From Pomacea canaliculata (taxonomy: Eukaryota; Mollusca; Gastropoda; Architaenioglossa; Ampullariidae): 64,000 bases of DNA. The notes under the pieces are model-generated. The model made no database searches and was not told the origin of the DNA. It saw only the letters and a list, made by a program, of their open reading frames with translations. The DNA lies in NCBI RefSeq assembly GCF_003073045.1, contig NC_037600.1:13845188-13909187 (forward strand). Reading direction: 5' to 3'. Positions within the stretch are counted from its first letter, which is position 1; the number at the start of each line of letters is the position of its first letter. A program made the translations under genes and the position numbers. Of the stretch, positions 25,288 to 58,121 are shown in pieces.

Positions 25288-26145
25288 ATGGAGATGGCTG
25301 AGGAAAACACCGACGAGCAGGTGAGGGAGCTGGCGCTGTTGCTACAGGGCGGCGACTTCTCACAGGTGGCGCTACAGGCCGTGATGGACTGTCGTCAGCA
25401 GCAGCAGAAGGATGACACACGGAATGCTGGGAGGATGCAGACCTTGCTGCTCCTCCTCACCCATTACTGCCCGCAGACGCGGGAGGTCAAGGGGTCATTG
25501 CAGTGGAACGTCGCACCAGTGCTTCTGCCCGACACCACACGACTGGGTCACAGGGTGACAGACGATCGGGTAAGAGTAGGTGACTGTCTAGGGAGGGATT
25601 ATATCACTAAAATTCTCCAGAATTAGTGCTCCGTGTATTCATATTTTGTGACAAGACTGTAGTTGAGGCTTCATGCAAACTTCTACAGAATGAAATAACC
25701 CTCTTCCAAGAATTAACTTACTTTAATTCAACCTGGACTGTCATGTCTTGACATTTGATTGGATTAAACCGCTGACGTCACCAGGCCAGGTTACGTGTGG
25801 TGACGTTCCTTGGAAACGTACTGGAGCATGCGCAGACCAAACTGATGATGGAGTCGCAGCAGACGGTGGTGGGTTACGTCTCCGGCGACTGGCCTCGTCT
25901 GGAGCGGGTGTTGCGGCAGGCCATCCATTGCACGAGAGACACGTACCCGGCTTTTCTGCAGGTAAACGTTGACTACCCTGACAGGTGAATCCTTGTCAGT
26001 CTTGGATGACTCCTGTGAATGTTTACACCTGTGTTTCCTCGTTCCAGCGTAGATTGCTCCCGTTAGTCTTTTTCATTGGTTATCTGCTGTATCACTGCTG
26101 TATCTGTTCGTCCTCTATATCTTCGCATTTATTTTTTTTTTAATT

Positions 26146-26178
<33 letters not shown>

Positions 26179-29100
26179 AGGAGGGTCTAGTCGAGAGAAA
26201 GGTAAAATTTTCAAAATCATACAGAATTTCAATGAAAGTTTCGCTCATTTCTTCAGTTTTGAAATCGCTTTGCTGTCATTTTCCTCTTCACTATTCCTTA
26301 GTATAAAGTTGTGGTCAATGACGCTGGTTTACTTGCTTCAGTGTCGTTGTTGCTGTTATTACAACTGCTAACACATTTTCCTAGTTACAGTTAATGTCTT
26401 GCCGCTGTTTAACGCAGACAAGCATGTCGACAGGTGGCGCTGGCAGCGGACAGACTACTCGTGAGGTGTTTCCCCAAAAAAGCAAAGAGGTTCTTGGAGG
26501 ACATGGCTCACGCTGCCAAGATGTTCGGGACGTCACGTGACCATGCTGTGCTGTGGGGCTTGACGGGAAATGCTATGAGCCAATATGAAGGTCTGTTGTT
26601 ATGGAGACAGGAAGGCGTATTTTCCCCCGTATAAGGGTCAAACGTTAAAAGTACCTTTACAATTCGAAAATGTTAATTTCCAATGTAATAATGAATATTA
26701 CTGGTTTGTTGGTATGGCTGACCTAATGATTCTTTAATAATCAAGTTTCTTTTGTTTTAATTTCTTGCTGGCACCTGCCATGATTATTTCTCTGAACTCG
26801 GGGCGACGAGGACAGACTGTTGGCTGTATGCATTTATTTTTCACATTACTTTATCTTCCAGGCACAGACTGGGACGAGGCTCTTGGCCGAGTGAGAGATT
26901 CCGTCAGCAAACTGTCAGAAGCAGAGCCTTGTGTACATTACGCGCGCATGCTGTTTGACCTCGGTCTTATACACTTCCGCCTGGGTCAACATGATGAAGC
27001 TTATAGGTATCTTATCGTACTTTGAGCATTAAATGTACGTGGGCTGCATGTGGGGTCGTTAAGAGATTTGCATGTGTGTATTGACTAAAAAGAAGGAAAC
27101 AATCTGAATAAGTCTGATGGGAAGACAATTTTATGACTAGTTTAACAAATGAAGCTTCTCGAGCGACTTGTTGACGAGAATGTAATTTGGCGATCACAGA
27201 ACGATGACAAATTGAGGTGAAGACTGGTTAAGTCTTTTAAATTAAGCACGTTTAATTGATTTTTAAATAAATAATTGAAGCATAAATCTAAAGGTTAAAT
27301 ATATGAAAGGAAAACGAAACAGAAAAAACATCGGATTAGATGACAGACCCTAACGTTCTTAATTGCTTTCGCTTCCCTTACCTTTAACTAACATTCTACA
27401 AAAGACCCATGCATTTCGACACAGCAAACAATTTGAATGTGATGTTGTCAGTAGATGTGTATCTGAAGAAGGGATGTAATTTGGGGGTAATTATCAATTA
27501 TCTCAGAAATATGATTTGCACACTGCTCAGCTCAGTCCTTTGAAAAAAATAGCGCTTTTTGTCCTGTGACCTTTGACCTTTACGTCAATGTGGCCTCTGT
27601 TGACAGGTATCTGAGCATGGCGAGGAACGTTTCTGAAGACACTGCCCACGGAGACGATTCACAGGTGGTGTACTTCCCCATCAGACTTCGCTGCTACCTG
27701 TCCATGCCATTAATATTTAAAGGTGAACGTCAGCGTCAACTGAAGTATTAGTAGCAGTAGTAACAATGTTGTGAATGGTGTACCAACGTGACGTAGTACA
27801 CTGTGTGGAGTTGACTGGAGACAACGTTGTGAATGGTGTCCAGACGTGACGTAGTTCACTGTTATCAGCTGTCGTTGATTGCAGGTGCCAATCGTAGCGG
27901 ATAAGTAATATGGAGGCTGACATTTACAGGTTAATTTTATATCTCCTATATCTACTGATATCTGAAAAAAACGCAAACCATTCCAGTTGGTCTTTAAGTT
28001 TATATTTATGTCACACTTTTGTGTAGCTAACGATATATGTCAGAGATATATATATACACTTGTGTCATATATATAAATTGTAGAGACGATTATCCTGTCT
28101 TGTTAGGTAAACTGACAGAGGCAAAGAATTTGGTGGAAGAAGCTCTGGAGCTGTGTTCCCAGCTGACGACCTATCATCCAGACAGAACAACACTGCTTAA
28201 CAACCTTGGTCTCATCTACGAAGCGCAGTGAGTGTCTAGGTTCTTAACAACCTGTTGTGACAGTTAACAAACATTTGTGACAGGGGGTAGAGGGTGTGGA
28301 TCAGTGTTTCATCTCGCTGTCAACATGACAAACAAGAAACTGGACTGAGATGAAAATAGTGTCGTGGAAGAAAGGACGGTTAGTCAACGGATCAGCTGAA
28401 GCCATAAAATGGAAACACAATGTCACGATAAAGAACCACGGTCCAGTACATCACTGAGATCGCGACAGGTTAAACAAGTCACTCCCAACATCAAAATTAA
28501 ATCAGTAAAGGAACAAAATTTAAAGAAATCCAGAAAGTTAAGACCTCTCAACTGGTAAGGCTAAGGGACATAACTCTCCACCCTCTCATATGTGGCATGT
28601 GATTTGTACTCAGCTGTTATTATTAAACAAATAATGTGTGGCTTGATAAATATTCTTGATGATGATAATGATAATTTGTATGCACATCTTGACAAGGGAG
28701 CTCATTACCTTTACACAGGAAACCTTGTTATTTCGTATAACAGGCAGTGAGAATCAGGACCTGGCGCTGCATTATTACCGACAATCTCTGCAGGAAAGGA
28801 GAGGCCTTCCCAGCATGCCGCCTTCAGACCTGGTTCCTTTGATTATCAACGTGGGCATGCAGTACAGCAGGAGAGGACATTATGGTAAGGCACCCAGCAC
28901 GTGACCCTGTAACCCTGACACCGCCTACACTCTGAGCCCCTAGCGGCCAAATATTACTCTACATCAAAGACAATATCGGATTCACTTAAATTACAAATAT
29001 ATGTACAGGTAATAAGTTTTTTTTTATTTTAACTTTCATAAAAAGTTTTCTGTACTTGCGTTTATTTTAAGGACAACGCTAAAGGCTCACGGACAATAAC

Positions 29101-30776
29101 TCTACTCGCCTACGTAAATTCGAACTACTTATTCCCTCCCTTCTCTCGATGAATTTGTATTTAAAAATAACTTTAGTGATACTTCACTTTTGCTTTCTAA
29201 TGTGTCAAACTGTAGGCGGCGATAGTCAAACGATTTCGATTTTAAAATTGTTGAACTTTTAGCTTTTTTGTTACATAACAATAATACCATTTGACCCGAT
29301 CATCCTTAGTAAGTCGACATCAACAAAGAAAAATGCCTCAATGTTTCAAGCCAACTACACATATTATGGTATTTCAGAAAATCTAAAAGGAAAACGACGC
29401 TAATTTAATATATATATATATAGTTTATTGGTTGATGTTTTTCTACATACATAGGTGTAGGCTTTGTTACATGTATTGGTACAGACACGGCAATGGCGCA
29501 CCTTCAAGAAGCGCTGAAGATCCGAGAACAATACGGGTGGTGGCACTTCAACACAGCTTTAACCCAAACAAACCTTGCTCAAGTCTGCGTCTTGAGGTGA
29601 CTATGGACACCTTCTCTCAAAGTCGGTTCCGATGGTTGGTTGCATGCGAGTTCTTAAAATCAAGTCCAGAATCGCGGGTTTGAGGTGCAAGTCGACATTG
29701 CTAAGTGTGCATCTGAATAGTCGACTTGCACACTAGAAAACTTCTTTTGCATTTTTCTTTATATCTTTTTATCATCAACATTGAAATTATCGACGAATCT
29801 GACGTCAGAAGTAAAAACTCACCCAATTATGTAACTTATTTTAATACAGACACGACTTCCAGAGTGCGGCGGACTATCTGCTGAAGTCCAGGAGCATCCT
29901 AGCAAAGTGCACTCCCCATCATGAACAGCGCGGTCACGCGTCCCTGCTGTTGGCCCATGTGTACGTCACACCGCCCCTCTATGACCCCGGCCAGGTGAGT
30001 CGCTACCTGCAGGAGGTGCTGGAGGTGCTTGATGTCAGGCAGCAGAGCCGCAGCTCGTCAGGCACGTTGATGGTGTTGTCATGTGCGGAGCATTGCATGC
30101 AGCTGGGCGGCTGGCGTTGGAGCGAGATGGACCCCTACCTGAAGGTGGTTGAACAGGTGGGTCTGTGTATGGGTGTATGTCTGTGTGTGAACGTGTGTAT
30201 AGGTGTATTTTACTGTATGTGGGCGTATATTTGCTGTGTATTGTGTATTTGCTTGCATATGTCTGTGCGTGATGGGAGAGAGAGAGAGGAGAGTAAGAAA
30301 TGAATTCTGAATGTGTACATAGTGGCATATGTATATGAATAAATACACATACTTGTTTTGTGGTAATATATGATATCCAAATATTATTTAGGGCTTACAG
30401 AAATGCAAGGCTTAGAAACGCCTGTAATATGCACCTGGTGAAAGAAGAGATGTACGAAGAGTGCACAAAACTTGTAAATCCTCTTATTTGCTTTCATTGT
30501 CTCCCCTCTACTGTCTGTTCTTTGTAGCTGCTGAAGCAGTTTGAAGGCGACCTGTCTCCACAGCTCAAGGAGCACCAAGTCATTTTTGAAAAAGTCAAGA
30601 AACTAGAAGGACAAGGGGACACCATCAAAGCCGAGCAAGCTGAGGAACTGACGTCACACGTGGTGGCCGCCTGTCATTTTTGCAACATATTTTACGACGA
30701 TAAAGACTTCAGAGAACTGTGGAGACGAGTGGAGATGAACATAGGTGATCAGATGAGAGTCTATGATCTCACGTAA
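25288..30776 (+). CDS. TPR-repeat protein, array copy 1 (one frame slip)
   Basis: First of four tandem copies of an all-helical TPR protein; function not recognised. Exons: 25288-25569, 25785-25961, 26434-26590, 26862-27006, 27607-27722, 28107-28227, 28744-28884, 29485-29596, 29850-30156, 30528-30776. TPR-type helix pairs are clear in exon 4 (LFDLGLIHFRLGQHDEAYR) and in exons 6-9 (LLNNLGLIYE, LALHYYRQSL, MAHLQEALKIREQYG, ADYLLKSRSIL). The start MEMAEENTDEQ is shared by the array. Exon 6 is 121 bases instead of 120 (GAAGCGCAG for GAACGCAG at about 28221-28227), which shifts the frame into a stop in exon 7. Exon 3 can be entered in frame only at the second of two possible acceptors, because GACAAGCATG has one base more than GACGACATG of the other copies. 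The usual AATAAA after the stop reads AAGAAA. It may be a recent pseudogene, or the slip may be an assembly error. Confidence 0.75.
26148..26177. repeat. Poly-T tract in intron 2 of TPR copy 1
   Basis: An uninterrupted run of about 30 T lies in the intron between exons 2 and 3. The matching intron of copy 2 has only about 10 T (near 36030), so the run has grown or shrunk since duplication. Confidence 0.9.
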
Positions 30777-31781: not shown

Positions 31782-32129
31782 CAGGGGTGGGCAATCGGCG
31801 GGCCGAAATGAAGTCCTTGGCGGGCAGATTACTGGCATATGCAAGGATCACTCGGCATAGAGGCCGAAAACAGTATTTAATGATGCTAACGTCATGTACT
31901 TCAATAGCTGCTGAAGTCAATGAGACAGCTGCGGTCGATCAAAGTTGTCAGCAAGTTGCTTGAACTCTGGCTGCATGTCGGACATAGAAATCCTCAGTAA
32001 CGACTGCACGTGAATATCAGTTAGACTGGAACGCAGATTTTGTTAATGTTCATGGGCCACATTATCATGTATGACCAGAAACAGTCTTCAAAATCCCGTC
32101 CGGATCCGGCCGTATGTTGCCAACCCCTG
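31782..32129. mobile_element. Short non-autonomous hAT-type DNA transposon
   Basis: The element is 348 bases long. It starts CAGGGGTGGGCAATC and ends GTTGCCAACCCCTG, imperfect terminal inverted repeats of the CAGGGGT-GGCAA type. It is flanked by a perfect 8-base duplication GTCTACAG at 31774-31781 and 32130-32137, the hAT hallmark. It carries no transposase frame, so it must have moved with an enzyme supplied elsewhere. Confidence 0.9.
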
Positions 32130-34812: not shown

Positions 34813-37800
34813 ATGGAGATGGCTGAGGAAAACACCGACGAGCAGGTGAGAGAGCTGGCGCGGTTGCTACAGGCCGGCGACTTCTCACAGGTGGCGCTAC
34901 AGGTCGTGATGGACTGCCGCCAGCAGCAGCAGCAGCAGCAACAACAAGATGATAAACGGATGCAGACCTTGCTTCATATGCTCACCCATTACTGCCCGCA
35001 GACGCGGGAGGTCAAGGGGTCATTGCAGCGGAACCTCGCACCAGTGCTTCTGCCCCCGCCAGGTGTCTGGGACACGTGGTGACGGACGATCAGGTAAGAC
35101 ATGAGGGGGTTAACTGTTTGCATAGTGAGGGTTTATATAAAAAAAATTCATTTTTTCTGGGAAAAGACAGTATACTGATTATCGTTATTCCAAGAACTGA
35201 CCTACTTAAATCCAGACTGAAATACTCATTGAACGTTTTTTAAATGGCTTCCCTTCTCATCTCCAGCAAATAAACTCTAACCTGTTTCCGACAAGAATTA
35301 CTGAAATACCATATTCATTTTTCAAAGCCTCTTTTAACAGTTGGCGAGACTAGCACCTAGATATGCTTGCAAATTCAAAGACTTAAACCGTTTAAATTCC
35401 TTCCTATTGCAGGACCACCCCCTTCACCCTTAAATATCTATATGATTATCGTATTCCTCCCCTATTTCAAGCACATTAGGATGAAAACTCTAACAAAATT
35501 AACTAAACTTCACTGAATTGACTTCATGGATTGATGTTGCGCTGTTGCATGTAACTTTTAACTTAATAGCAACGCAAATCACATTGTTCACACCACACTC
35601 ACTTGTCCAACCCGCTGACTGGACTGTTGAGTGCACGTGACTGAATGCACTTAACGCTGTCTTGACGTTTGATTGGACTAAACCGCTGACGTCACCAGGC
35701 CAGGCTACGCGTGGTGACGTTCCTTGGAAACGTACTGGAGCATGCGCAGACCAAGCTGATGATGGAGTCGCAGCAGACCGTGGTGGGTTACGTCGCCGGC
35801 GACTGGCCTCGTCTGGAGCGGGTGCTGCGGCAGGCCATCCATTGCACGAGAGACACGTACCCGGCTTTTCTGCAGGTAAGCGTTCACTACCCTGACAGGT
35901 GAATCCTTGTCAGTCTGTCTTGGATCACTCCTGTGAATGTTTACACCTGCGTGTCCTCGTTCCAGGGTAGACGGCTCACTTTCATTGGTTATCTGATGTA
36001 TCGCACGTCTTCGTCCTCTGTTTCTTTGCATTTTTTTTTTCTTTTGAGGAAGGTCTAGTTGAGAGAAAGGTATGCGGACTGTCTGAGTAAGAATATTCGG
36101 CAAAAGGTCAGGAAGGAACTGAAGTTTTATCTGAAAACGTAAGAACGGAATTTTTTCTCATCATTAGGATTGTTCAAATCTCCAATAAGCTTGAAAACGC
36201 TTCAAAACATTAAGATGGTTTCGTGAGCGTTTCGACCATTCCTTCAGTCTTTGAAACCACTTTGCTTTCATTTCTTTTTATTATTCCTGCTTCTGAGGTT
36301 GTAGGGAATGACGCTGGTGTATTTGCTTCAATGTCGTTGTTGCTGTTATTACAACTGCTAACACATTTTTCCTAGTTACAGTTAATGTCTTGCCGCTGTT
36401 TAACGCAGACGACATGTCGACAGGTGGCGCTGGCAGCGGACAGACTACTCGTCAGGTGTTTCCCCAAAGAGGCAAAGAAGTTTTTGGAGGACATGGCTCA
36501 CGCTGCCGAGATGTTCGGGACGTCACGTGACCATGCCGTGCTGTGGGGCTTGACGGGAAATGCTATGAGCCAAATCGAAGGTTTGTAATTAGTGAGACAA
36601 CAAAAGATGTATTTATCCCATCTCCCATATTGCGTCAAGCGTTAAAACCACCAATCGAATGTCTGAAAATGTTAATTTCTAAAAAATAAATAAATAAATA
36701 AATAAATATTACTGGTTTCTTGGTAGAAATGATCTTATATATGATTCTTTGATAATCAAGCTTCCTTTGAAAGCTATAAGCCTGTAGAACATAGAAACAT
36801 TTTTATTCAAACAGATACATCTCTAACAACTCCGACTAGTCAAAAGCTGATAAAAATTTCATTGGAGCTTATCCCTTTTTGGTGTACTGTCTTAAATATC
36901 AAAAGAATCATCGGCACCTAAAAACCAAAGCCTGGATTTTTATATTACGGTATAAAACTTCAGGCAGTTTGATTTGTTAAAGCAGCGAGACAAGGTTTAG
37001 TTTTCTTGAGCTGTCTTCAGGGCACATATTAGTGTTTGTATCCTTGTATGAGACATAATTCAGACATATTCACATCTTCGACAATATGTGTTCGATTAAA
37101 ATCGTTTCTAAAAACGAAACAGAAATGAAACCTAAAGGTGACGAGGACAGACTGTTGGGTGCCGGTATTTATTTTTCACATTCGTTTATCTTCCAGGCAC
37201 AGACTGGGACGAGGCTCTTGGCCGAGTGAGAGATTCCGTCAGCAAACTGTCAGAAGCAGAGCCTTGTGTACATTACGCGCGAATGTTGTTTGACCTCGGT
37301 CTTATACACTTCCGCCTGGGTCAACATGATGAAGCTTATAGGTATCTTGTCGTATTTAGAGCATAAAATATACGGGGACTTCATTTGGGGTCGTTAAGAG
37401 ATTTGCATGTGTGCATTGACGAAACACATTTCCGTTACTCTTTTAGGTGTTAGCCATAGCGCAGAAAAACACTCACTAATATCCCAAACACCCACTTATC
37501 TCACAAACACTCACTTATCTCACAAACACCCACTTATATCATCTATTGATATCTCAAACACACATGGTTTCGCTGCTGCTCATTTGAGACACGGTAACTA
37601 GGTCAGGTGAATCATATTCATATAGGTGACGTCACTGTTTTGACCTCTGAACTTGATGCTGTCGGTAGGTATGTATCTGAAGAAGGGACGAGACTTGGGG
37701 TTCATTCTCTCAGAAATATCATCTTGCACACTAGTCAGCTCAGTCATTTGACAAATAAACGCCTTGTGCCCTGCGCCGTGGTGGCCTCTGTTGACAGGTG

Positions 37801-41269: not shown

Positions 41270-42853
41270 ATGAGAGAGAGAGAGTGGCTAACACGAGGAC
41301 TTTTCTCCACCAGACGATTACTTTTGACAAGATGTTACATTTACTTAATTAATCCAGCAACTTTATACCACCCTACCCAGCTAGTTATGTGGAATCAACA
41401 TCTTAACAACGTGCATCACTCACCTTTGACCCTGGAACCCGTTTCTACACCCCCACCGCTCCCTGTTGGTTCGGGTGTCTTGGTTCAGATTTCATTTCGG
41501 GGATCGGTGTTCTTTTTATACAATCAACGCCTTCGTAACAGAACCGGGCTGAAACATTTTTTTCGGCCACATTGCCGTCAGCTGTGTCGTTATTTTCTAT
41601 TTTTGTTTTATATTGAATATATATTGGCGTGGCGACCCTGTGATTTGGCGGCTTGGTGCAGGTGCCCCTGCCACTATGCCCCCTTTCCTTCGTATCTACA
41701 CGTCAGTGATACAAGTTTCCACTTGTCTGAGGGACTCGTGACTGTACTCAGCTCAAACCAGGAGGACAAACCGTTGTTGCCAGAAGTCGACAGTCGTTTC
41801 GATTAACAACGGAAGGAGATAAGACCATAGGGACGCTCAGACGGATAATTTTACATCTCTTTGATTTTGAATCTTCAGTTCAACTTGACATCGCTAGTGA
41901 CCATGTGCATGTTCTTACATGTCAACATCTTCCTGTTGTGCTTTCAGTCCCAGTGTGTAAACAAGATCCGGGTTTTTGTTGTGTAGCTAAGATAACTTGA
42001 CATTAAGAGGGAGGTTAAACAAACACAGGCTGTCGGTGGTCAGTTGTGTTTTTTTCACGGGTAGGGGGTTTGATAACCCTTATCTCACTAGCTTTCCTGC
42101 GCAGTAGACAACGGGTGTTTGCGAGAACAGTCCTCACTGGAATTTTAAACACACAGGCAGTGATTGCATGCAGCGATCTTTAGTATCAACCACCTGCCAT
42201 TTCACAGCAACATCCAGTTCAGTTTCATGCTAACACCAAATTCTACTTGATTCAACGTCCAGAGACGGTAGTTATAAATAGAGGATAAGTCTTTGCCCTG
42301 TGGGAAAATGGGAAACCCGATGAAAATCGTCCTGTTTCCAATGTTAAAACCTAACGGGAGCTATTTCATGTTACTTTACCCCAGGGCATCTTTTCCACCT
42401 CCTTATAATTACGGTTCATTGTCTGGGGTCTGAATATCGGTTTATAATTATATAGAAAAAGACGCTTGTCTTTGAGTTCCCTGTGTTGCCCTAGGGCAAA
42501 GACTTACCCTCGCTTCATAGTTACCGCTCCAGAGATATTTCGCGTTAACATCCGGTGCTATTTCATAGTAATATCAGTGTTATGTTATATTAATATCCTG
42601 TGTTACCTCATTTTATTATTTAGTGCTTACTTTTATCATTTTTGTCGACGACGAGGACGACGACGACCACCACCATATTCATTTACGCTTTACATGTCAT
42701 CAACATTCATTTATGAATATAATTTATTATCACTTGAATATACGAATCATAACAATCGTGTCTAACAATTTAAGTTGTCACGTGTTCAGAGTCAGCAAGG
42801 TGAGCCAGCTTTTCCAGCCAGACAAGCTCGTGCGAGAAAACCCTCGTTAGACG
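41270..42853. other. Spacer upstream of TPR copy 3
   Basis: No independent gene is seen. Large parts align with DNA before copy 4 (50940-52000), for example ATTGCCGTCAGCTGTGTCG and TATTGAATATATATTGGCGT, and some with DNA before copy 2. A GAC-rich simple repeat lies near 42642-42672, and the conserved CACGTG stretch is at 42779-42784. Confidence 0.5.
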
Positions 42854-45800
42854 ATGGAGATGACTGAGGAAAAGGACACCGACGAGCAGGTGAGGGAGTT
42901 GGCGCGGCTGCTACAGGCCGGCGACTTCTCACAGGTGGCGCTACAGGCCGTGATGGACTGCCGCCAGCAGCAGGAGGATGATGTAAAGAATGCTGGGAGG
43001 ATGCAAACCGTGCTTTATATGCTCACCCACTACTGCCCGCAGACGCAGGAGGTCACGGGGTCATTGCCGCAGAACGTTGAGTCACTGCTTCTGTCCCCCA
43101 CTATCCGACTGAGTCACATGGTGACGGACGACCAGGTAGGATATGAGAAGGTAACCGTTAGCTTAGCAAAAAAAAAATTATCACTGAAATTCTCGAGAAA
43201 TAATTCTCCGAGGCTTCTTTTTAAAAAAGAAAAATTAGGATACATATATTTTCTTTGATTAAACAGTGTACGTGAGGCTTTCTGCAAACGTTTCTAACTT
43301 GTCTACCCTTAATAATAATAAACCGCTGACGTCACCAGGCCAGGTTACGTGTGGTGACGTTCCTTGGAAACGTACTGGAGCATGCGCAGACCAAACTGAT
43401 GATGGAGTCGCAGCAGACCGTGGTGGGTTACGTCGCCGGCGACTGGCCTCGTCTGGAGCGAGTGCTGCGACAAGCCATCCATTGCACGAGAGACACGTAC
43501 CCGGCTTTTCTCCAGGTAAACTGTTACAAAACTGCTGCACAACACAAAAAGGTTTCAAGCGGACGAAAGGCTTATCGTTCCTCGACAGCTTACATATAGC
43601 TCATAGCTCAGTTAATAGTTACATAGCTCATAGCTCAGTTAATTTAAAAATAACATTTTGTATGTATTGTCACATATCAGTCCGTGCCTCCATGTTTTAA
43701 AGTCAATTTAATCCCTTCGCTGTTTATAAATTACAATGGTAAATAACATGTATTGATGAGTGAGAGCGTCAGCGAGGAAAGGGAGATCACTCTAGCGAAA
43801 AAGAGAGGGGCGCAGACGACATTGGCGGACATGAGAGTGGAAGGATGTCGTGTGAGTGTTAATGTGAGCGTATATGCTAGAAGTAATTTTTTGCCTAGCC
43901 AAGGTTTTTTTTTTTTTTTCTGTTTACGAGCGATTGAGGTAGGTAGCGCCCTTGTGATCGACGATTCGTCTAGATCTGATCTTTTTGCTTTCGGTGAAGC
44001 GCCCAGCAGTGTGTAGACAGTGTGTACAGTGTGAACTGTGTGTACAGTCGGCTTCTTGTCGCCAACAAAATGTAAATGAGATCTATGAGTAAAGTACTAA
44101 ATGACTGCTGGTGCGATTATTAACCACATGATAAGAATTGAGATTAAGAGTGGAGGTTATGATTAAGAATTAAAATTAAGAGTTATTTAAGTGTGATTGA
44201 TCGGGGAAGACCCCGGATTGTAAACATTGCATGTGCCCATAACTGTTTCGCCGATAGAATATTGTATTGAGGCGGATTATTATTTATGCATATGTGTCTT
44301 GAAGTTTGTGAAATCCTGAGCCATTCAGCAACTCATTAACATCTTGTGGACAGCCTCGGGCAATCGTGTTGTGTGTGAACGAACGCGTACGGACGTCGTG
44401 TGTGTGTGTTGAGAGAGAGAGAGCGGCGTCCGTGACATGTATAGGCATGCCTTACACGTCCAACTCAAGCAAGAACAGTATCTTTTCTCGTGAAAAATGG
44501 GATTGAGACCGTTTAAAAGAAATTTTTAGAGACTGATAGTTTCGGTCATTTCTTCAGTCTTTGAAAACGCTTTGCTGTCATTTCATTTTCCGTGTTCCTG
44601 CTTTTGAAGTTGTGATTAATGACGCTGCTGTATCTGTTTCGATGTCGTTGTTGTTATTATTACAGCTGCTAACACATTTTCGTAGTTACAGTTAATGTCT
44701 TGCCGCTGTTAAACGCAGACGACATGTCGACAGGTGGCGCTTGCAGCGGACAGACTACTCGTCAGGTGTTTCCCCAAAGAAGCGAAGAAGTTTTTGGAGG
44801 ACATGGCTCACGCTGCCGAGATGTTCGGGACTTCACGTGACCATGCCGTGCTGTGGGGCTTGACGGGAAATGCTATGAGCCAATATGAAGGTCTGTTGTT
44901 ATGGAGATAAGAAAACTTTCCCTATATTTAGCCTTTAGAGTTAAAAGCTCCAGTTGAATGCCTGGGAAATGTTTACTAATAAAATAATGCACGTTACTGG
45001 TTTATGTGTAGGATTCACTTTATTATTCTTTATAAACTACGTTTATTTTGAAAACTTTAAGCCGGTAGTAAATAGGAAGAATTTGAAACAAGCAGATACA
45101 TAACGCTATCTTCAATAACTGGTCAAAAGTTAAAGGGCCCTGTATTGGAGTAATCCCTCTTTAAATGCCGCAGTCGTATTATAGCAAAACCTAGAGAAAA
45201 TTTGGTATTTATTTTTATTTTTTCACTTTCTTTTATCTCACAGGCACAGACTGGGACGAGGCTCTTGGCCGAGTGAGAGATTCCGTCAGCAAACTGTCAG
45301 AAGCAGAGCCTTGTGTACATTACGCGCGCATGTTGTTTGACCTCGGTCTTATACACTTCCGCCTGGGTCATCATGATGAAGCTTATAGGTATCTTGTCCT
45401 ACTTAATCTGAATCAATAAGCATCTGCAATTTTTAATGTTAGCCTACGAACATGCCATTGAGCAGAAAAACACCCGTTGATGCTGACGTCACCGTTCTGA
45501 CCTCTTTCTGAACTTGATGTCGGGTCATCCTCTCAGGATTATCCTCTTGAACACTACTTAACTAAAAAAACAAGCGTCATGTGCCCTGTGACCTTTCACC
45601 CATGGTAGTACCTGTTGACAGGTACTTCAACATGGCGAGGGGCCTTCCTCCAGACGCTGATCATGGGGATGAATCACAGGTGGTGTACTTCCCCATCAGA
45701 CTTCGCTGCTACCTGTCATTGCCATTAATCTTTAGAGGTGAGCAGACATCAGTACTGCGTGAACTGAAGTATTAGTAGCAATACTAGTGCATCACTGGCT

Positions 45801-48800
45801 ATATAAAAGTATGCATGCTATACATATTCACACTATACATATATACACACATAAAGGTTGTGACGAAAGCATGTTTACAACATGTTTACAAACGAGTCAT
45901 GGTACTTCTGATTTTTGTTATATTTTCATTATTTCGTTAAATGAGCAGAAGGAGCATCGAGCAAGCATTTAAAGACATTGATGTTCACTGGAATCTGTGT
46001 TACTCTGTGTCACAGCTTCAGAGACAAGTTCCAGGAATGTTGGGACATTACTTTTTTGGCCCTATATATATATATGTGTGTGTGTGCCTTTTGTGTGTGT
46101 GTGTGTGAGTCATTTATATATTTCTTTAAAGACATTTTACTTATTTTATGTTTGCGTCATGTAGATATTTCATATGTATAAAGAAATTGTAGAGACCATT
46201 ATCTTGTCTTGTTAGGTAAACTGACAGAGGCAAAGAAGATGGTGGAAGAAGCACTGGAGCTATGTTCCCAGCTCACGACCTATCATCCAGACAGAACAAC
46301 ACTGCTTAACAACCTTGGTCTCATCTACGAACGCAGTGAGTGTCTAGGTTCTTAATAAACTGTTGTGACACAGCAAACGAAACATTCGTGACATTATGGA
46401 CGTTTATTGCTGTCGATTGCTGTCGGTCTGCCGAGACCAACGCTTAGCCTCTTGCGAAGTTCTCTGCTGTTAGTCTCCGCGAGCCTTAACAGTGAATGTG
46501 ACTAAGCCGGAAGCTTTGCAAACACCTGCCAGTTAATCTGAAATGTAAATAAAGCGGAAGCTTTGTCGTCTAATGCCTCGTTTTAGCAGTTAACTGGAAA
46601 AAATCGTCTGCTAGCAGTCCAGTAATACTAGTTCGTGACGGATCTGCTGTTTAAAATGTGTCACTAACATGGTAATCAAAAAGTTTGTTTTAATAATAAT
46701 AGTACTTACTAATCCTACTCGCAAATAAATGGTCAATAGAACTCAAAGTAAGGATTACCGTAAAGTTGATTTTATTATAGAGCGGTTAGAAGTTCCGGTA
46801 GGCCCTCGCTATCAAGATGGTGTGTCGTCAACAAACTACTTCTTGGTCTCGGTAATAAAATACTCAAACTTACACTGAAGCTCTTCGTGTGTCTGTCGTT
46901 TATTCTTCACTAGCATCTGAATATATTTTTTATTAACTATTTAAAAGGCATTCAGAAGATGGATGCCACGCCCAAACAAACGTGACAGAACGAAAAGAGT
47001 GAGTGAGCGAATGAGAAAAGAAATTGAATGAAAGTCTCTAATACATAAGTGGTGTTCTGTATACCTGTTCTGGAAAAGGCCTATGGTTAACCTTAACCTC
47101 GATTTATCTCACCTGTATTTATTTATTGTCAAAACATAGGGCATAGAATTCTAGTCAGCTGTTGATGAGCAAATGATGATGATGACAAGGACGACGACGA
47201 CGATTTTGATTTTAACCTAAAGGACATGTAATACTTGTGTTATTTCATGTAACAGGCGGTGATAATCAGGACCTGGCGCTGCATTTTTACCGACAATCTC
47301 TGCAGGAAAGGAGAGGGCTTCCCAGCATGCCGCCTTCAGACCTGGTTCCTTTGATTATCAACGTGGGCATGCAGTACATCAGAAGAGGACGTTTAGGTAA
47401 GACACCCATCACGTGACCTCTAAGCCGTCTAAGGTTTATAGGCGACCCAGGCACCGCCTACACTCTGAGCCCCTAGCGGCCAAATGTTGCTCTACATCAA
47501 AGACAATTCCAGATTTACTTCCATTACAAACATATGTAGAGTTACTAAGTTGTTTTGACCTTTTAACTTTCGTAGAAAGTTGTGTTTACTTACATTTATT
47601 TTAAAGGCAGCGTAAAAGGTTTACGACCAATAACTCTACACGTCTACGTAAATTCGAACTATTGTGTCCCTTCCTACTCCTGAAGAATTTGTCTTTAAAG
47701 AACAACCCGAGTGCAACCAGTGTGTGTGTATAAACTCCTCTGCGTGCGTGACGGCTTGTGTTGCATGTATTATTACAGACGAGGCAATGGTCCACCTTCA
47801 AGAGGCATTGGAGATTCGGAAACAGTGTGGATGGCTGCACTACAACACAGCCTTAACCCTAAAGAACCTCGCGCGAGTCTGCATCTTGAGGTGACTATCG
47901 ACACCTCTATTAAAAGTCGTTTCCAGTGGTTTATGTACAGTCTGAGCTCGCTGGTTTGATTGCAACGTGTGGATCTTAATAGTTGAGTAGAACGCTTGGA
48001 AACCAATGGGTTGAAACTCCTTTTCTAGATTTTACATGCACGCGAGCCAATGGATAATTTTGGAAGATGTGCGGAAAGATGTGGGCCTCATGCCAAGTCC
48101 GATTAAGGATCTCTCATGTAACCGACCCCAAAGGTGTAACATCCTGAGGAAACAAAGGAAGAGTCTACGGTCATTCACATTTAGTAAAGACGTTTTATTA
48201 CATAAATATTCTTTTTGCTTAAAACTCCTTACGGTGTTAACACAAAATGTTTTCGTGTTAACACGTGCAAAGTTTTTATTTTAATTCATTTTTTGTAAGA
48301 TTTTGCTCTTTTTCTCTCCGTAGTCTCTTTTTATTTAGTTATATATGCTTCTTTTTCCTTCTTATCTTATTTTTTATTAACATTGAAATAATCGACGAGA
48401 TTGATGTCGGAACTCATTGATTTAACTCGTTTTAACACAGACAAGACTTCCAGGGTGCGGAGGACTATTTGCTGAAGTCCAGGAGCATCCTGGAAAAGTG
48501 CACTCCTCAGCATGAACAGCGCGGTCACGTGTCACTGTTCTTGGCCCATGTGTACGTCACACCGTCCCTCTATGACGCCGGCCAGGTGAGTCGCTACCTG
48601 CAGGAGGTGCTGGAGGTGCTTGATGTCAGGCAGCAGAGCCGCAGCTCGTCAGGCAAGTTGATGGTGCTGTCATGTGCGGAGCATTGCATGCAGCTGGGCG
48701 GCTGGCGTTGGAGGGAGATGGACCCCTACCTGAAGGTGGTTGAAGAGGTGGGTCGTGTCTGTGCGTGTACGTGTGTATAGGTGTGTTTTACTTTATGAGG

Positions 48801-49499
48801 GCGTATATTTGCTGTGTATGTATATGGGCGCGCTAGTACCTTGCTGCGTGTCCACGTGTTCATACGTTTGTGCATGTGTGGTCTTCTTCCTGTGCGCGTG
48901 CGTGCTTCTCTGTGCAGTGATGTCTGCATCAGTGCGCACATGGGTTTATATGTGTATATTATTGCGTATTTTTCTTGCACATGTCTGCGTATGTATGGAA
49001 GAGAGAGAGAGGAGATTAAGAAATTAATTTTTAATGTTTTCATAGTTGTGTATGGATAATTTGATACACATAATGTTTGTGGTAATATATGAATATCCAA
49101 ATATTATTTAGGGCTCACAGAAATGCATGGCTTAGAAACGCCTCCGGTAATATTCACCTGGTGAAAGAAGAGATGTACGAGAAATGCACAAAACTCGTAA
49201 ATCCGCTTATTTACCTTTATCGTCTCCTCTCTACTGTCTGTTCTTTGTAGCTGCTGAAGCAGTTTGAAGGCGACCTGTCTCCACAGCTCAAGGAGCACCA
49301 CGCCATCTTTGAAAAAGTCAAGAAACTCGAAGGACAAGGGGACACCGTCAGGGCTGAGCAGCTGGAGGAACTGACGTCACACGTGGTGGCCGCCTGTCAT
49401 TTTTGCAACATATTTTACGACGATAAAGACTTCAGAGAACTGTGGAGACGAGTGGAGATGAACAGAGATGACCAAAGCAAAGTCTCTGATCTCATGTAA
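42854..49499 (+). CDS. TPR-repeat protein, array copy 3 (intact)
   Basis: The only copy open from start to stop. Exons: 42854-43135, 43339-43515, 44719-44890, 45244-45388, 45622-45737, 46216-46335, 47256-47396, 47779-47890, 48441-48747, 49251-49499; 1821 bases, 606 residues, all GT-AG with matching phases. Residues 1-210 are helical without clear repeats (RELARLLQAGDFSQVALQAV; VTFLGNVLEHAQTKLMMES). TPR-like helix pairs fill about 211-260 (LFDLGLIHFRLGHHDEAYRY) and 298-450 (AKKMVEEALELCSQL, LLNNLGLIYER, MVHLQEALEIRKQCG, AEDYLLKSRSILEKC). The end (525-606) has a conserved CHFCNIFYDDKDFRELWRR. There is no signal peptide or membrane segment, so it is probably a soluble scaffold. The match is to generic kinesin-light-chain-like TPR solenoids; no catalytic motif is seen and I do not recognise a function. 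Exon 3 could also start at 44734, five residues shorter. Confidence 0.85.
43754..44434. mobile_element. Unclassified insertion in intron 2 of TPR copy 3
   Basis: About 680 bases absent from the matching intron of copy 4 are flanked by an 8-base direct repeat ACATGTAT (43746-43753 and 44435-44442). The ends (TGATGAGTG... and ...GGCGTCCGTG) do not form a clear inverted repeat. The inner part is rich in GTGTACAGT-like repeats near 44010-44045. Its class is unknown, and the flanking repeat could be chance. Confidence 0.4.
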
Positions 49500-52004: not shown

Positions 52005-55000
52005 ATGGAGATGGCTGAGGAAAAGGACACCGACGAGCAGGTGAGGGAGCTGGCGCGGTTGCTACAGGCCGGCGACTTCTCACAGGTGGCGCTACAGGCC
52101 GTGATGGACTGCCGCCAGCAGCAGGAGGATGATACAAAGAATGCTGGGAGGATGCAAACCGTGCTTTATATGCTCACCCACTACTGCCCGCAGACGCAGG
52201 AGGTCACGGGGTCATTGCGGCAGAACGTTGAGTCACTGCTTCTGTCCCCCACCACCCGACTGAGTCACGTGGTGACGGACGACCCGGTAAGATATGAGGG
52301 GGGTAATCGTTTGCCTACCAAATATATATATATCACTGAAATTATCGAAAATTAATTCTCTGAGGCTGCTTTCTTTTTTTTAAAGAAAAATTCGAATACA
52401 TAGATTTTCTGTGACTAGACAGTGTACGTGAGGCTTACTGCAAACATTTCTAACTTGTCTATTCCTATTATTATTATTAAACCGCTGACGTCACCAGGCC
52501 AGGTTACGTGTGGTGACGTTCCTTGGAAACGTACTGGAGCATGCGCAGACCAAGCTGTTGATGAAGTCGCAGCAGACGGTGGTGGGTTACGTCGCCGGCG
52601 ACTGGCCTCGTCTGGAGCGGGTGCTGCGGCAGGCCATCCATTGCACGAGAGACACGTACCCGGCTTTTCTCCAGGTAAACTGTCACAAAACTGCTGCACG
52701 ACACGGAAAGGTTTCAAGTGGACGAAAGGCTCACCGTTGCCAGACAGCTTAAGTCCTGCTCACAGCAACGTTAATTTAAAAATAAAATTTCGCGTGTATA
52801 TCCATACTTTATACGTTTAGAAGGTTTATCTGACACTTTAAAAAAATACGGTATCGTTTCTTAGGATGCTGCAAACATGAGATTGAGACAGTTTAAAATT
52901 TTTTTTTTTCAGAGACTAAGAGTTTCCGTCATTTCTTCAGTCTTTGAAAACCGCATTGCTGTCATTTCCATTTTCGTGTTCTTGCTTTTGAAGTTGAGGT
53001 GAATGACGCTGCTGTATCTGTTTCAGTGTCGTTGTTGCTGTTATTACAACTGCTAACACTTTTTCCTAGTTACAGTTAATGTCTTGCCGATGTTTAACGC
53101 AGACGACATGTCGACAGGTGGCGCTGGCAGCGGACAGACTACTCGTCAGGTGTTTCCCCAAAGAAGCGAAGAAGTTTTTGGAGGACATGGCTCACGCTGC
53201 CGAGATGTTCGGGACGTCACGTGACCATGCTGTGCTGTGGGGCTTGACGGGAAATGCTATGACCCAATATGAAGGTCTGTTGTTATGGAGACAGGAAAAC
53301 TTTCTCCGTTTGGTGCCGCAGTCGTAATATTGAAAAACCTAAAGAAAATTTGGCACCTCCAAACGAAAGCCTATATTTTTACAGCACACTATAAAACTTC
53401 AGCCAGTGTGCTGTATTCACATCTTCGACGATATGTGCTCTATCGTCTCTAAAAATCACCGACGTGTATAGGTGGACTGCTGTCTGTCTGCCGAGACCAA
53501 CGCTTAGCCTCGTGAGAACTTCTCCACTGTTAGTCTCGGCGAGCCCGAACAATGAATGTGACTAAACCGGAAGCTCTGTACACACCAGCCTCGTGTTAGT
53601 AGTAAACTGGAAAAAAAAATCTTCGGCCAGCAGTCCAGTAATGCAAGTTCGTGCTAAAAATGAAAGAAATGAAAGCTCAGGGTGACGAGGACAGACTTCT
53701 GGCTGCCTGTATTTATTTTTCACATTACTTTATCTTCCAGGCACAGACTGGGACGAGGCTCTTGGCCGAGTGAGAGATTCCGTCAGCAAACTGTCAGAAG
53801 CAGAGCCTTGTGTACATTACGCGCGCATGCTGTTTGACCTCGGTGTTATTCACCTCCGCCTGGGTCAACATGATGAAGCTTATAGGTATCTTGTCATATA
53901 AGGAGCATTGAAATGTACGTGGGCTGCATGTGGGATCGTTGAGAGATTGGCATGTGTGAACAGTCTTGCTTTATTTGTTTCTATCTATAGTTGTCAATTT
54001 GTACCCAAAATTCTGTCGTACAAACTAGATTAGCGAGACTAAGTGCAACACAAGGCTTTTTATCCAAAATCTTCCAGACTGTATTTGTTCCAGTCACTGA
54101 TGATAGAAAAAAAACCTAGCATTACTTAATTTGAGTCAATAGGCACCTGCAATTTTTAATGTTAGGCTACAAACATTCATTTGAGCAGAAAAACACCACT
54201 GATGCTGACGTCAACGTTCTAACCTCTTTCTGAACTTGATGTCGGATCATCCTCTCAGGATTATCCTCTTTAACACTACTTAACCGAAAACTAAATGTCA
54301 TGTGCCCTGTGACATGCCATAGTCCTACCTGTTGACAGGTACTTCAAGATGGCGAGAGGCCTTTCTCCAGACGCTGCTCATGAATCACAGGTGGTGTACT
54401 TCCCCATCAGACTTCGCTGCTACCTGTCATTGCCATTAATCTTTAAAGGTGAGCAGACATCAGTACTGCGTGAACTGGAGTATTGGTAGCAATGCTACTG
54501 TATCACTAGCTATATACATACACATACTATACATATTCACACTATAGACATACACATACACACATAAAGGTTATGACAAAAGTATGTTTACAACAAGGAA
54601 TACGTGTCATGTTACTTTTGATTTTTGTTATTGTTTTAATTATTTCTTTGAATGAGCAGAAGGGGTATCGAGCATTTGAAGACATTGATGTTCACTGGAA
54701 CCTGTGTTACTGTGTCACATCGTCAGGGACAAGGTCCAGGAATGTTGCGACATTACTTTTTGGGTCCTTTATGTATGTGTGTATGCCTCTATGCGTGTGA
54801 GTGTGTGTGAGTCATTTGCATATTTCTTTTAAAGACATTTTACTTATTTTGTGTTTGCGTCATGTAGATATATCATATGCATAAAGAAATTTGGGAGACC
54901 ATTATCTTGTCTTGTTAGGTAAACTGACAGAGGCAAAGAATTTGGTGGAAGAAGCTCTGGAGCTATGTTCCCAGCTCACGACCTATCATCCAGACAGAAC

Positions 55001-58000
55001 AACACTAATTAATAACCTTGGTCTCATCTACGAACGCAGTGAGTGTCTGGGTTCTTAACAACCTGTTGTGACAGCAAACAAAGATTCGTGACATGGGGTA
55101 GAGAAGGGGGGGCGCATTTTGAAAGGTTCGTGACAGATCTGCTGTTTAAAATGTGTGACAAGCATGGCGATCAAAAAGGTTTTCTTAAAAAAAAAAATAG
55201 TAATATACTAATCCTACTCGTTAATGCCTTGTCAGTAGAACTCAGGATAAAGTCGATTTTATTATAGAACGGTTAGAAGTTCAGGTAGACCTCTTGGTCT
55301 CGTTAATTAAACACTCGATTTCATCTTTCCTTTCTTCCTTTATTCTTCACTAGCATCTGAATGTTATTAACTATTTAAAAGGCATTCAGAAGATGGTTGC
55401 CACGTTGAAAAAAAAACGCGATAGAACGAAAAGAGCGAGTGAGCAAATGAGAAAAGAAATTGAATGAAAGTATCTAATGCATACGTGGTGTTTTGTATAT
55501 CTGGATTAGGCATAGGGTTAACCTCCATTTATCTCACCCGTATTTATTTATTGTCAAAGATTAGGACAAAGAACTCTAGTCAGCTGTTGATGAACAAATG
55601 ATGATGATGATGAGAACGACGGCGATGATGATGATTTTAACCTAAAGGACATGTAATACTTGTGTTATTCCTATAACAGGCAGTGACAATCAGGACCTGG
55701 CGCTGCATTTTTACCGACAATCTCTGCAGGAGAGGAGAGGCCTCCTCAGCGTACCACCTTCAGACCTCGTTCCTTTGATTATCAACGTGGGCATGCAGTA
55801 CAGCAGGAGAGGAAAATATGGTAAGACATCCATCACGTGACCTGTAAGGTTTATAGGTGACCCTGGCACCGACTACACTCCTAAGCCTCTTGCAGCCAAA
55901 TATTGCTCTACCTCAAAAACAATTTCAGATGTACTTACTTTACAAACATAGATAGAGGTTTAAAGTTCTTTTGTCATTTTAATTTTCGTAGAAAGTTTTG
56001 TGTACTTATATTTATTTTGAAGGCAGCGTAAAAGATTTACGGTCAATAACTCTACACATTGGACTCCTATTTCAATCCCTACTCCCGAAGAATTTTTCTT
56101 TAAAGAACAACCCGAGTGCAACATTTTTTCATTTATGATCGGGTTAAGTTCATTTAAAAATAATAATTCCCCAAATATGAGTACAGAATTCTGTTTTGTT
56201 TTAACGATGTAAGCCTTCAAACATCGGCATTCTCACCTGCCACTAAGGATTGCATCTTTCCTCTTAATTCACCTTCGGTAGAGAACATTATTTTTAGAAA
56301 TACGTCGCTTTCCTCACTTCTTGCTTTCTAGACAAATGCAGGTGTGCTTAATAGAACAACAATAGAATATTTCTCGGGCCTCCTAGTCATAAAGTACGGA
56401 ATATGTTTTTATGACACTTTATGCTCTATTTCCAGCGATTTGCACTGAGCACTTTTGTTGTCCTTCAAAAATAAGTTCAGTGATACAAGACTTCTGCATT
56501 TTAATATGTCTTAAGCTGTAGGCGGCTAGAGGTAAACATCTATACACTTTTAAAAGTAGTGAACGGTTTTAGCTTCTTTGTTACTTCATAATGACTCCCT
56601 TTGACCGATGATCCTCAGGAAGTGGACATAAACAAAGAAAAATCTCTCCTTCATACCTGTCTTTCAATATTTTCTAAAACTACATCTGTTTCTTTAACAA
56701 CACAATTTTACTAATATATTTATTGTTCATTGATGTATGTTTATGTGTCTGTGTGTGCGATTACATGTTCGGGTTTGTCTGTATGCACTCGTCTGCGTGC
56801 GTGACGGCTTGTGTTGCATGCATAATTCTAGTCGATGCAGAGGTCCACCTTCAAGATGCATTGGAGATTCGGAAACAGTGTGGATGGCTGCACTACGACA
56901 CAGCTTTAACCCTAAAGAACCTCGCACGAGTCTGCATCTTGAGGTGACTATCAACACTTCTATTAAAAGTCGTTTCCAGTGGTTTATGTACAGTCTTTAA
57001 GTGTTAAAACTCCTTACGGTGTTAACACAAAATACTAAGACGTGTACAGTTTTTATTTTAATTTTTTATTGTCAGCTTTGTTCTTTTTTTCACCCGTAGT
57101 CTCTTTTTATTTAGTTATGTATGCTTCTTTTTTCTTTTTATCTTAATTTTTATTAACATCGAGTAGTCGACGAGATTGATGTCGGAACTTATTGATGAAA
57201 CTCATTTTAACACAGACAAGACTTCCAGAAGTGCGGCGGACTATCTGCTGAAGTCCAGGAGCATCCTAGCAAAGTGCACTCCTCAGCATGAACAGCGCGG
57301 TCACGTGTCACTGTTCTTGGCCCATGTGTACGTCACACCGCCCCTCTATGACGCCGGCCAGGTGAGTCGCTACCTGCAGGAGGTCCTGGAGGTGCTTGAT
57401 GTCAGGCAGCAGAGCCGCAGCTCGTCAGGCACGTTGATGGTGTTGTCATGTGCGGAGCATTGCATGCAGCTGGGCGGCTGGCGTTGGAGCGAGGTGGACC
57501 CCTACCTGAAGGTGGTTGAACAGGTGGGTCATGTATGGGTGTAAGTCTGTGTGTGTACGTGTGTATAGGTGTATTTCACTGTATGTGGGCGTATGTTTGC
57601 TGTGTATTGTGTATTTGCTTGCTGTTTGCTCTGTGCGTGATGGGAGAGAGTAAGAGAGAGAGTAAGAAATTAATTCTGAATTTGTACATAGTGGCATATG
57701 TATAAGAATAAATACAAATATAATTTTTGTGGTAATATATGATATCCAAATATTATTTAGGGCTGACAGAAATGCAAGGCTTAGAAACGCCTGTAATATG
57801 CACCTGGTGAAAGAAGAGATGTACGAGAAGTGCACAAAACTTGTAAATCCTCTTATTTTCTTTCATTGTCTCCCCTGTACTGTCTATTCTTTGTAGCTGC
57901 TGAAGCAGTTTGAAGGCGACCTGTCTCCACAGCTCAAGGAGCACCAAGTCATTTTTGAAAAAGTCAAGAAACTAGAAGGACAAGGGGACACCATCAAAGC

Positions 58001-58121
58001 CGAGCAGCTGGAGGAACTGACGTCACACGTGGTGTCCGCCTGTCATTTTTGCAACATATTTTACGACGATAAAGACTTCAGAGAACTGTGGAGACGAGTG
58101 GAGATGAACATAGATGACTAA
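52005..58121 (+). CDS. TPR-repeat protein, array copy 4 (one frame slip, mosaic)
   Basis: Exons: 52005-52286, 52498-52674, 53103-53274, 53741-53885, 54339-54448, 54919-55038, 55680-55820, 56832-56943, 57216-57523, 57897-58121. Exons 1-8 group with copy 3 (MEMAEEKDTDEQ, YFKMARGLSPDA, DALEIRKQCGWLHYDTAL), and exon 5 has an in-frame loss of two codons. Exon 9 is 308 bases instead of 307 (CCAGAAGTGCGG for CCAGAGTGCGG near 57227), shifting the frame. From the middle of exon 9 onward, including intron 9 and exon 10, the sequence groups with copy 1 (KEHQVIFEKV, GDTIKAEQ). The stop is early: GACTAAAGC where copies 2 and 3 have GACCAAAGC, removing about eight C-terminal residues. It may be functional if the exon 9 slip is an assembly error. 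Confidence 0.75.

What the first reader, a model, noticed from the sequence alone, without database searches (positions are those of the whole stretch)
25288..58121. Four-copy tandem array of an unrecognised ten-exon TPR gene family
Seen: four head-to-tail copies with the same ten exons, near-equal exon lengths and the same phases, only one of them open throughout. The N-terminal 210 residues have no repeat I recognise, and the C-terminal CHFCNIFYDDKDFRELWRR block is very conserved. Known: large tandem families of TPR or kinesin-light-chain-like scaffolds are often lineage-specific. Inference: this is a recent expansion of a family of unknown function, and the best candidate here for an undescribed system.
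Basis: partly seen in the sequence, partly recalled or inferred. Interest (0 to 1): 0.7.

Follow-up and report, generated by a model that had tools for sequence, protein, structure and literature searches.

The report
Snail TPR genes lacking ATPase head
Four side-by-side gene copies, probably from an apple snail, look like the sensor half of an NLR-like molecular switch without its ATP-binding head; one copy is intact, and what they do is untested.

Summary
Four head-to-tail copies with the same ten exons are present, all 36 introns are GT-AG, and only copy 3 is open (601 aa). The same genome (by size perhaps Pomacea canaliculata) holds one dispersed relative about 6 Mb away. It shares the ten exon joins, but is preceded by exons with a P-loop (GQALVGKT) and a GLP motif, the layout of a STAND ATPase with a TPR sensor. 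No ATPase exon was found beside the window copies. The array is best read as a NOD-less (headless) derivative of a STAND-TPR, NLR-like gene. Pairwise dN/dS is 0.33-0.46 and frame-breaking indels are 8-24 times rarer in exons than introns. The breaks in copies 1, 2 and 4 may be decay or assembly errors. Function is inferred only.

The parts
25288..30776 (+). Copy 1, ten exons: 25288-25569, 25785-25961, 26434-26590, 26862-27006, 27607-27722, 28107-28227, 28744-28884, 29485-29596, 29850-30156, 30528-30776. One extra base in exon 6 breaks the frame.
34813..40248 (+). Copy 2, ten exons: 34813-35093, 35699-35875, 36424-36580, 37197-37341, 37798-37912, 38391-38510, 38594-38734, 39232-39343, 39606-39912, 40000-40248. 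One base short in exon 1 and in exon 5.
42854..49499 (+). Copy 3, the only copy open throughout: 601 aa, ten exons
52005..58145 (+). Copy 4, ten exons: 52005-52286, 52498-52674, 53118-53274, 53741-53885, 54339-54448, 54919-55038, 55680-55820, 56832-56943, 57216-57523, 57897-58145. One extra base in exon 9, six bases missing in exon 5, early TAA in exon 10 at 58119-58121.
42854..43135 (+). Copy 3 exon 1 (residues 1-94): start codon with an in-frame TAG two codons upstream in all four copies; holds the position of the winged-helix exon of the dispersed gene, alike mainly in its last 16 residues
   Evidence: score reached by 1 of 3000 shuffles whole, by 525 of 3000 without the last 16 residues
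43339..43515 (+). Copy 3 exon 2 (residues 95-153), first half of the arm-like segment, best conserved exon of the family
   Evidence: 38/59 identical to the relative; pooled dN/dS 0.09
44734..44890 (+). Copy 3 exon 3, second half of the arm-like segment (to about residue 206)
   Evidence: 31/50 identical to the relative
45244..45388 (+). Copy 3 exon 4, first exon of the TPR region
45622..45737 (+). Copy 3 exon 5, TPR region, fast-diverging exon
46216..46335 (+). Copy 3 exon 6, TPR region
47256..47396 (+). Copy 3 exon 7, TPR region
47779..47890 (+). Copy 3 exon 8, TPR region; dS 0.73-1.06 between copies 1-2 and copies 3-4, 0.59 between 1 and 2, 0.09 between 3 and 4 (36 codons)
48441..48747 (+). 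Copy 3 exon 9, helical repeats at and after the last Pfam TPR matches
49251..49499 (+). Copy 3 exon 10, C-terminal part with the CHFCNIFYDDKDFRELWRR block and stop
42771..42853 (+). 5' flank shared by copies 1 (25204-25287), 2 (34730-34812) and 3; copy 4 has other sequence up to six bases before its ATG

Best explanation
The array is a tandem family of NOD-less STAND-TPR proteins. A gene like the dispersed relative (P-loop ATPase, GLP helical segment, winged helix, arm, TPR sensor) was copied without its ATPase exons, the exon at the winged-helix position acquired the start codon and lost most of its likeness, and the truncated gene was then tandemly multiplied. The product would be a soluble, mostly helical scaffold: a new or decayed N-terminus, a conserved arm, and a TPR superhelix that binds a protein or small ligand. 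Most likely mechanism (inferred): in STANDs with a TPR sensor the arm and sensor hold the inducer and also keep the ATPase closed. A free arm-sensor could therefore bind the same inducer without switching (a decoy or sink) or dock in trans on the full-length relative and tune it. Shown: gene anatomy, homology of exons 2-10, absence of detectable ATPase exons nearby, coding constraint. Inferred: the direction of change (loss rather than gain of the head), the winged-helix and arm labels, and the whole function.
For: The dispersed relative at C11:7.850-7.858 Mb shares all ten exon joins and phases, and the proteins are 45% identical; exons 2-10 score z 14-46 against shuffles. Directly upstream of its shared exons lie two exons with GQALVGKT and GLP and phase-0 joins. 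Read through, they match Pfam AAA_16 E 3.2e-4 and NACHT 0.0022, both under their curated cut-offs. The ATPase part was found at one locus of the genome (one stray match at E 2.84) and nowhere relevant in the window. An in-frame TAG stands two codons before the ATG in 4 of 4 copies. Pfam TPR_12 E 7.8e-27; TPR_MalT, named for a bacterial STAND, E 4.2e-8 but under its cut-off. Passages of PMC6468293 give the STAND layout NBD-HD(GxP)-WHD-arm(103 aa in PH0952)-TPR sensor; residues 95-206 here are 112 aa. dN/dS 0.33-0.46 in six of six pairs; out-of-frame indels 0.55-1.67 per kb in exons against 11.9-17.3 in introns.
Against: Exon 1 is alike only at its end: without the last 16 residues the score of copies 1, 3 and 4 is reached by 240, 525 and 481 of 3000 shuffles, and the genome searches with either protein did not pair exon 1 with the relative's exon. 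No Pfam winged-helix family matched, and residues 1-91 fold with pLDDT under 50. The relative's own ATPase exons are broken in two places in this assembly, its hhhhD Walker B pattern was not found, and genome searches with NB-ARC, NACHT and AAA_16 do not list its locus, so its ATPase may be dead or only remotely related. There is no outgroup, so gain of the head by the relative is not excluded. Three of four copies are broken as assembled. The exon-intron indel contrast partly reflects the lower overall divergence of exons, and intron alignments are poor (59-77% identity). No expression or binding data.
Confidence: 0.45

Rival explanations
1. A dying array: one working gene (copy 3) and three pseudogenes, kept by chance after duplication, with no special role. 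(Not exclusive of the best explanation's ancestry.)
For: Copies 1, 2 and 4 stop after 334, 89 and 439 residues as they stand; copy 4 lacks the 5' flank shared by the other three and has an early TAA.
Against: All out-of-frame differences in exons are single bases and are 8-24 times rarer per kb than in introns; dN/dS 0.33-0.46 in all six pairs; all 36 intron borders intact. Much of this could date from before the breaks.
Confidence: 0.35
2. All four copies are intact in the animal and the frame breaks are consensus errors: if this is the published PacBio assembly polished with short reads, such reads map ambiguously to near-identical copies. (Not exclusive of the best explanation.)
For: Every frame break in the array is a one-base indel. 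The single-copy relative also shows two apparent one-base losses. Assembly method from passages of PMC6129957.
Against: The published assembly was corrected with Pilon and reports 98.9% BUSCO. Copy 4's early TAA is a substitution and its 5' flank is changed. No error rate was measured here.
Confidence: 0.3
3. A TPR scaffold family with no STAND ancestry; the dispersed relative gained an ATPase by fusion upstream of the shared exons.
For: Best natural PDB sequence matches are kinesin light chains, best E 2e-9, within residues 277-440 (two engineered TPR proteins rank higher). Likeness fades inside exon 1, just where a fusion joint could lie. Without an outgroup the direction cannot be fixed.
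Against: Exons 2-3, where a STAND arm belongs and outside the best Pfam TPR stretches, are the best conserved part. The kinesin match covers only repeats.
Confidence: 0.25
4. The window copies do have ATPase exons that were missed, for instance far upstream or too diverged.
For: Only sequence similarity was used; introns can be long; intergenic spacers of 2.5-4 kb remain unexplained.
Against: tblastn of the relative's ATPase pieces over the whole 64 kb found nothing relevant (best E 0.25, wrong strand), the genome search found the ATPase part at one locus, and the in-frame TAG before the ATG is conserved in 4 of 4 copies.
Confidence: 0.08

Closest known systems
STAND ATPases with a TPR sensor (MalT, PH0952; also AfsR)
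   Same: TPR sensor preceded by an arm-sized helical segment; TPR_MalT profile E 4.2e-8, under its cut-off; layout from passages of PMC6468293 and PMC10936776
   Different: Window copies have no nucleotide-binding domain and no effector domain that we could find, and no confirmed winged helix
Animal NLR-like NACHT/NB-ARC-TPR proteins (Hydra, Acropora, pearl oyster)
   Same: The dispersed relative has a P-loop domain followed by TPRs, an architecture reported for cnidarians (PMC7642931, passages) and pearl oyster (PMC9646362, passages)
   Different: ATPase matches AAA_16 and NACHT only below cut-off, no effector domain seen, two frame breaks; window copies lack the ATPase altogether
Kinesin light chains
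   Same: TPR sequence likeness within residues 277-440, best E 2e-9
   Different: No likeness outside the repeats in that search
LGN/Pins, OGT, APPBP2, IFIT and other TPR superhelices
   Same: Foldseek matches of the predicted models, e.g. APPBP2 TM-score 0.46 by query length
   Different: Generic TPR fold likeness at 11-22% identity in the 50 rows shown of each list; mean pLDDT of the models 51 and 61 only

Membership tests
STAND/NLR-like ATPase (window copies) | Nucleotide-binding domain with Walker A | tested here: not met
   No relevant match to the relative's ATPase pieces in the window; ATPase part found at one other locus only
STAND/NLR-like ATPase (window copies) | Winged-helix domain | tested here: inconclusive
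   Exon 1 sits where the relative's winged-helix-position exon sits (24/86, z 6.1), but likeness is confined to about the last 16 residues; no Pfam winged-helix match; fold not confident
STAND/NLR-like ATPase (window copies) | Arm domain before the sensor | tested here: inconclusive
   112 residues of predicted helices before the TPRs, similar in size to the PH0952 arm; no structural match to an arm shown
STAND/NLR-like ATPase (window copies) | Repeat sensor (here TPR) | tested here: met
   TPR_12 E 7.8e-27
STAND/NLR-like ATPase (dispersed relative) | Walker A | tested here: met
   GQALVGKT in an upstream exon of L005; AAA_16 E 3.2e-4, below its cut-off
STAND/NLR-like ATPase (dispersed relative) | Walker B (hhhhD) | tested here: not met
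   Pattern not found in the frames read; a frame break lies close by
STAND/NLR-like ATPase (dispersed relative) | GxP motif in the helical domain | tested here: met
   CHGLPPLV
STAND/NLR-like ATPase (dispersed relative) | Match to Pfam NB-ARC or NACHT over the curated cut-off | tested here: not met
   NACHT 18.3 bits against 26.7; locus not listed for NB-ARC or NACHT
Kinesin light chain | TPR array like KLC | tested here: met
   Best E 2e-9, within residues 277-440
Kinesin light chain | N-terminal heptad coiled coil that binds kinesin heavy chain | not tested
   Feature recalled; no coiled-coil prediction run; no kinesin match outside the TPRs
Widely conserved single-copy gene | One-to-one match in other animals | not testable with these tools
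   No animal proteome or genome other than the window's own could be searched

The most novel reading that the evidence does not exclude
The array is a detached-sensor system. Several arm-plus-TPR proteins, mixed by gene conversion and diverging in exons 1, 5 and 8, recognise different ligands and act in trans on one full-length STAND-TPR switch, as ligand carriers or inhibitors, so that recognition and switching are coded by separate genes.
Probability: 0.1. Interest if true: 0.75.

Novelty: new variant of a known kind. Interest (0 to 1): 0.42.

Why it matters
Truncated NLRs are known in plants (recalled), but a small animal family made of only the arm and TPR sensor of a STAND protein, under coding constraint, would be a test case for whether the sensor half of such a switch has a job of its own. 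It also gives a hypothesis to genes that a plain search labels only 'TPR' or 'kinesin light chain-like'. If three copies are dead, the case is ordinary gene birth and death.

Tried and rejected
Rejected: a kinesin light chain identity, because the match is confined to the repeats. Rejected: that exon 1 as a whole is shown to be a winged helix. Against real sequence the whole-exon score of 52 was not reached by any of 198 other stop-free stretches of the window (maximum 37). Copy 2's exon 1, cut at its frame break, gave no signal (1576 of 3000). Considered but not shown: positive selection. Exons 5 and 1 have the highest pooled dN/dS (0.66 and 0.59); pooled values stay below 1, though a few single pairs in single exons exceed it.

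Led nowhere: one scan of the 84,980-genome bacterial and archaeal collection with two peptide patterns gave 64 pattern matches and no relative. PDB search of the ATPase part gave one chance match, E 1.1. NCBIfam gave seven families for copy 3, all far below cut-off, best FxSxx_TPR. The single-sequence fold was poor (pLDDT 51); the eight-row fold was better (61), confident mainly within residues 170-430. Both Foldseek searches gave generic TPR superhelices. Paper searches with NB-ARC + tetratricopeptide + mollusc + NLR and tetratricopeptide + gene family expansion + Ampullariidae gave none; those gave papers but, in the listings and passages I saw, none on this family. One paper on 173 P. canaliculata genomes has no 'TPR' or 'tetratricopeptide' in its main text.

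Errors of mine on the way: one search used a wrong border for exon 2 (mended). In one search the winged-helix-position piece (P3) was translated in the wrong frame for the window tblastn; searches cover it. In one search copy 2 exon 5 was placed one base early (one search corrects it). In one search one line was read from base 244 and shows the wrong frame; the likely start codon in L005 is at 243. The gene-conversion test compared regions chosen after seeing the identities, so its p-value is post hoc. Codons with gaps were dropped before dN/dS (588-593 of 596 kept).
Full report
What is there. The window lies in a 440,159,624-base genome of 24 contigs, at C11:13845188-13909187. The size is close to the published Pomacea canaliculata assembly (440,071,717 bases, 14 large scaffolds, PacBio corrected with Pilon; passages of PMC6129957). 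Against this, contig C11 is 24.3 Mb while the paper's shortest large scaffold is 27.2 Mb, so the species is a guess from total size. Four copies of one ten-exon gene run head to tail on the + strand. Only copy 3 is open throughout, 601 aa. All 36 introns are GT-AG. Breaks: copy 1 has one extra base in exon 6; copy 2 lacks one base in exon 1 and one in exon 5; copy 4 has one extra base in exon 9, six bases fewer in exon 5 and a TAA in exon 10. An in-frame TAG lies two codons before the ATG in 4 of 4 copies, and copy 4 lacks the 5' flank that the other three share.

The relative. A protein search of the genome listed 49 matches at E <= 1, all in the four copies or at one further locus, C11:7852611-7857224; the reverse search listed 44 matches at E <= 10 at the same loci. 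The further locus (L005) has the same ten exon joins and phases; exons 2-9 have exactly the lengths of copy 3, the first is 312 instead of 282 bases, and the last carries a long serine-rich extension. Over the alignment the two proteins are 45% identical. Identity is 38/59 and 31/50 in exons 2 and 3, 15-38 matches per exon in exons 4-10 with z 14-35, and 24/86 in exon 1.

How far exon 1 is shared. The whole exon of copies 1, 3 and 4 scores better against the relative's exon than nearly all shuffles (3, 1 and 3 of 3000 reach it) and copy 3's score of 52 is above 198 other stop-free stretches of the window (maximum 37). Without the last 16 residues the signal is gone (240, 525 and 481 of 3000), and copy 2's cut exon shows none. 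The genome searches did not pair these exons. So the 3' end of exon 1 is shared; the rest has diverged beyond recognition or is of other origin.

Why STAND. Immediately upstream of the relative's first shared exon lie two more coding exons joined in phase 0. They carry a P-loop, GQALVGKT, and a GLP motif in CHGLPPLV. Read with X at two frame breaks, they match Pfam AAA_16 (E 3.2e-4), AAA_22 (0.0015) and NACHT (0.0022), each under its curated score. Passages of PMC6468293 give the layout of a STAND ATPase with a TPR sensor: nucleotide-binding domain, helical domain with GxP, winged-helix domain, an arm of helical hairpins (103 residues in PH0952) and a TPR sensor. The relative follows that order. 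By position, exon 1 of the window copies is at the winged-helix place, exons 2-3 (112 residues) are the arm, and the TPRs begin with exon 4. Pfam supports TPRs strongly (TPR_12 E 7.8e-27) and gives TPR_MalT at E 4.2e-8, below its cut-off. The winged-helix and arm labels rest on position and size; no profile or confident fold confirms them.

The head is missing. tblastn of the relative's ATPase pieces over the window found nothing relevant (best E 0.25), and over the genome only the relative's own locus, apart from one match at E 2.84. So the window copies are headless as far as these tools see. Against a strong claim: the relative's Walker B pattern was not found, genome searches with NB-ARC, NACHT and AAA_16 do not list its locus, and two apparent one-base losses break its ATPase frame in this assembly. 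The relative's ATPase may itself be degenerate.

Are the copies genes? Pairwise dN/dS is 0.33-0.46 in six of six pairs over 588-593 codons. Indels that are not a multiple of three occur at 0.55-1.67 per kb in exons and 11.9-17.3 per kb in introns, and every one in exons is a single base. Exons are also less diverged overall (91-95% against 59-77% identity), so only part of that contrast is protection of the frame. Together this shows coding constraint over much of the copies' history, not that each is alive now. The breaks could be recent or could be uncorrected long-read errors; no error rate was measured.

Mosaic. Over exons and introns 1-8, 235 two-by-two sites pair copies as 1-2/3-4, 20 as 1-3/2-4 and 21 as 1-4/2-3. 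In exon 9, intron 9 and exon 10 the counts are 4, 0 and 11 (Fisher p 1.1e-8 for the first and last, region chosen after inspection). Copies 1 and 4 are 95% identical over 930 bases there. dS in exon 8 is 0.59-1.06 in five of six pairs (36 codons), against 0.03-0.20 in exons 2, 3, 4, 6 and 9. Gene conversion is the simplest account.

Mechanism. Committed view: headless arm-sensor proteins, ATP-independent, that bind the family's ligand and act as scaffold, decoy or in-trans regulator of the full-length relative. I give the headless STAND-TPR ancestry about 0.65, the decoy or regulator role about 0.3, and 0.45 for the statement as a whole. Rivals are a dying array, consensus errors over four live genes (neither excludes the ancestry), and a plain TPR family whose relative gained a head.

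Known context. NLR-like proteins with TPRs are reported in cnidarians (PMC7642931) and in pearl oyster (PMC9646362); Aplysia has four NACHT proteins (PMC9334734); all read as passages only. The window's genome gave 4 NACHT matches (35 of 35 candidates scored) and 13 AAA_16 matches (17 of 343 candidates scored, so a lower bound) at E <= 0.01, none at the relative's locus. I did not find this family described in the searches listed under Tried and rejected.

Noticed in passing
59524-63098, - strand: Neighbouring gene with a J-domain-like C terminus (Pfam DnaJ E 0.0034, below cut-off); three further stop-free stretches upstream in the same orientation had no Pfam match.
   Followed up: partly
8594-9235, + strand: Exon of a sodium:solute symporter (Pfam SSF E 4.8e-6); with 11529-11987 it reads like the choline transporter SLC5A7 (recalled).
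   Followed up: partly
14821-17101, + strand: Exons of a small membrane protein with a proline- and glycine-rich tail, Shisa-like by eye (recalled); no Pfam match over cut-off.
   Followed up: no
L005:6988-8385: The dispersed relative ends in a long serine-rich extension that the window copies lack; no Pfam match over cut-off.
   Followed up: no
L006:5614-5931: A WAP four-disulfide domain is encoded upstream of the dispersed relative (Pfam WAP E 1.4e-7).
   Followed up: no
22632-25287: The stretch upstream of copy 1 is similar in pieces (75-93%) to the spacers between copies, so the duplicated unit seems to include about 2.6 kb of upstream spacer; one search lists no match to the protein upstream of copy 1.
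   Followed up: partly
63167-63628: Degenerate ACA/CACA-rich repeat tract.
   Followed up: no
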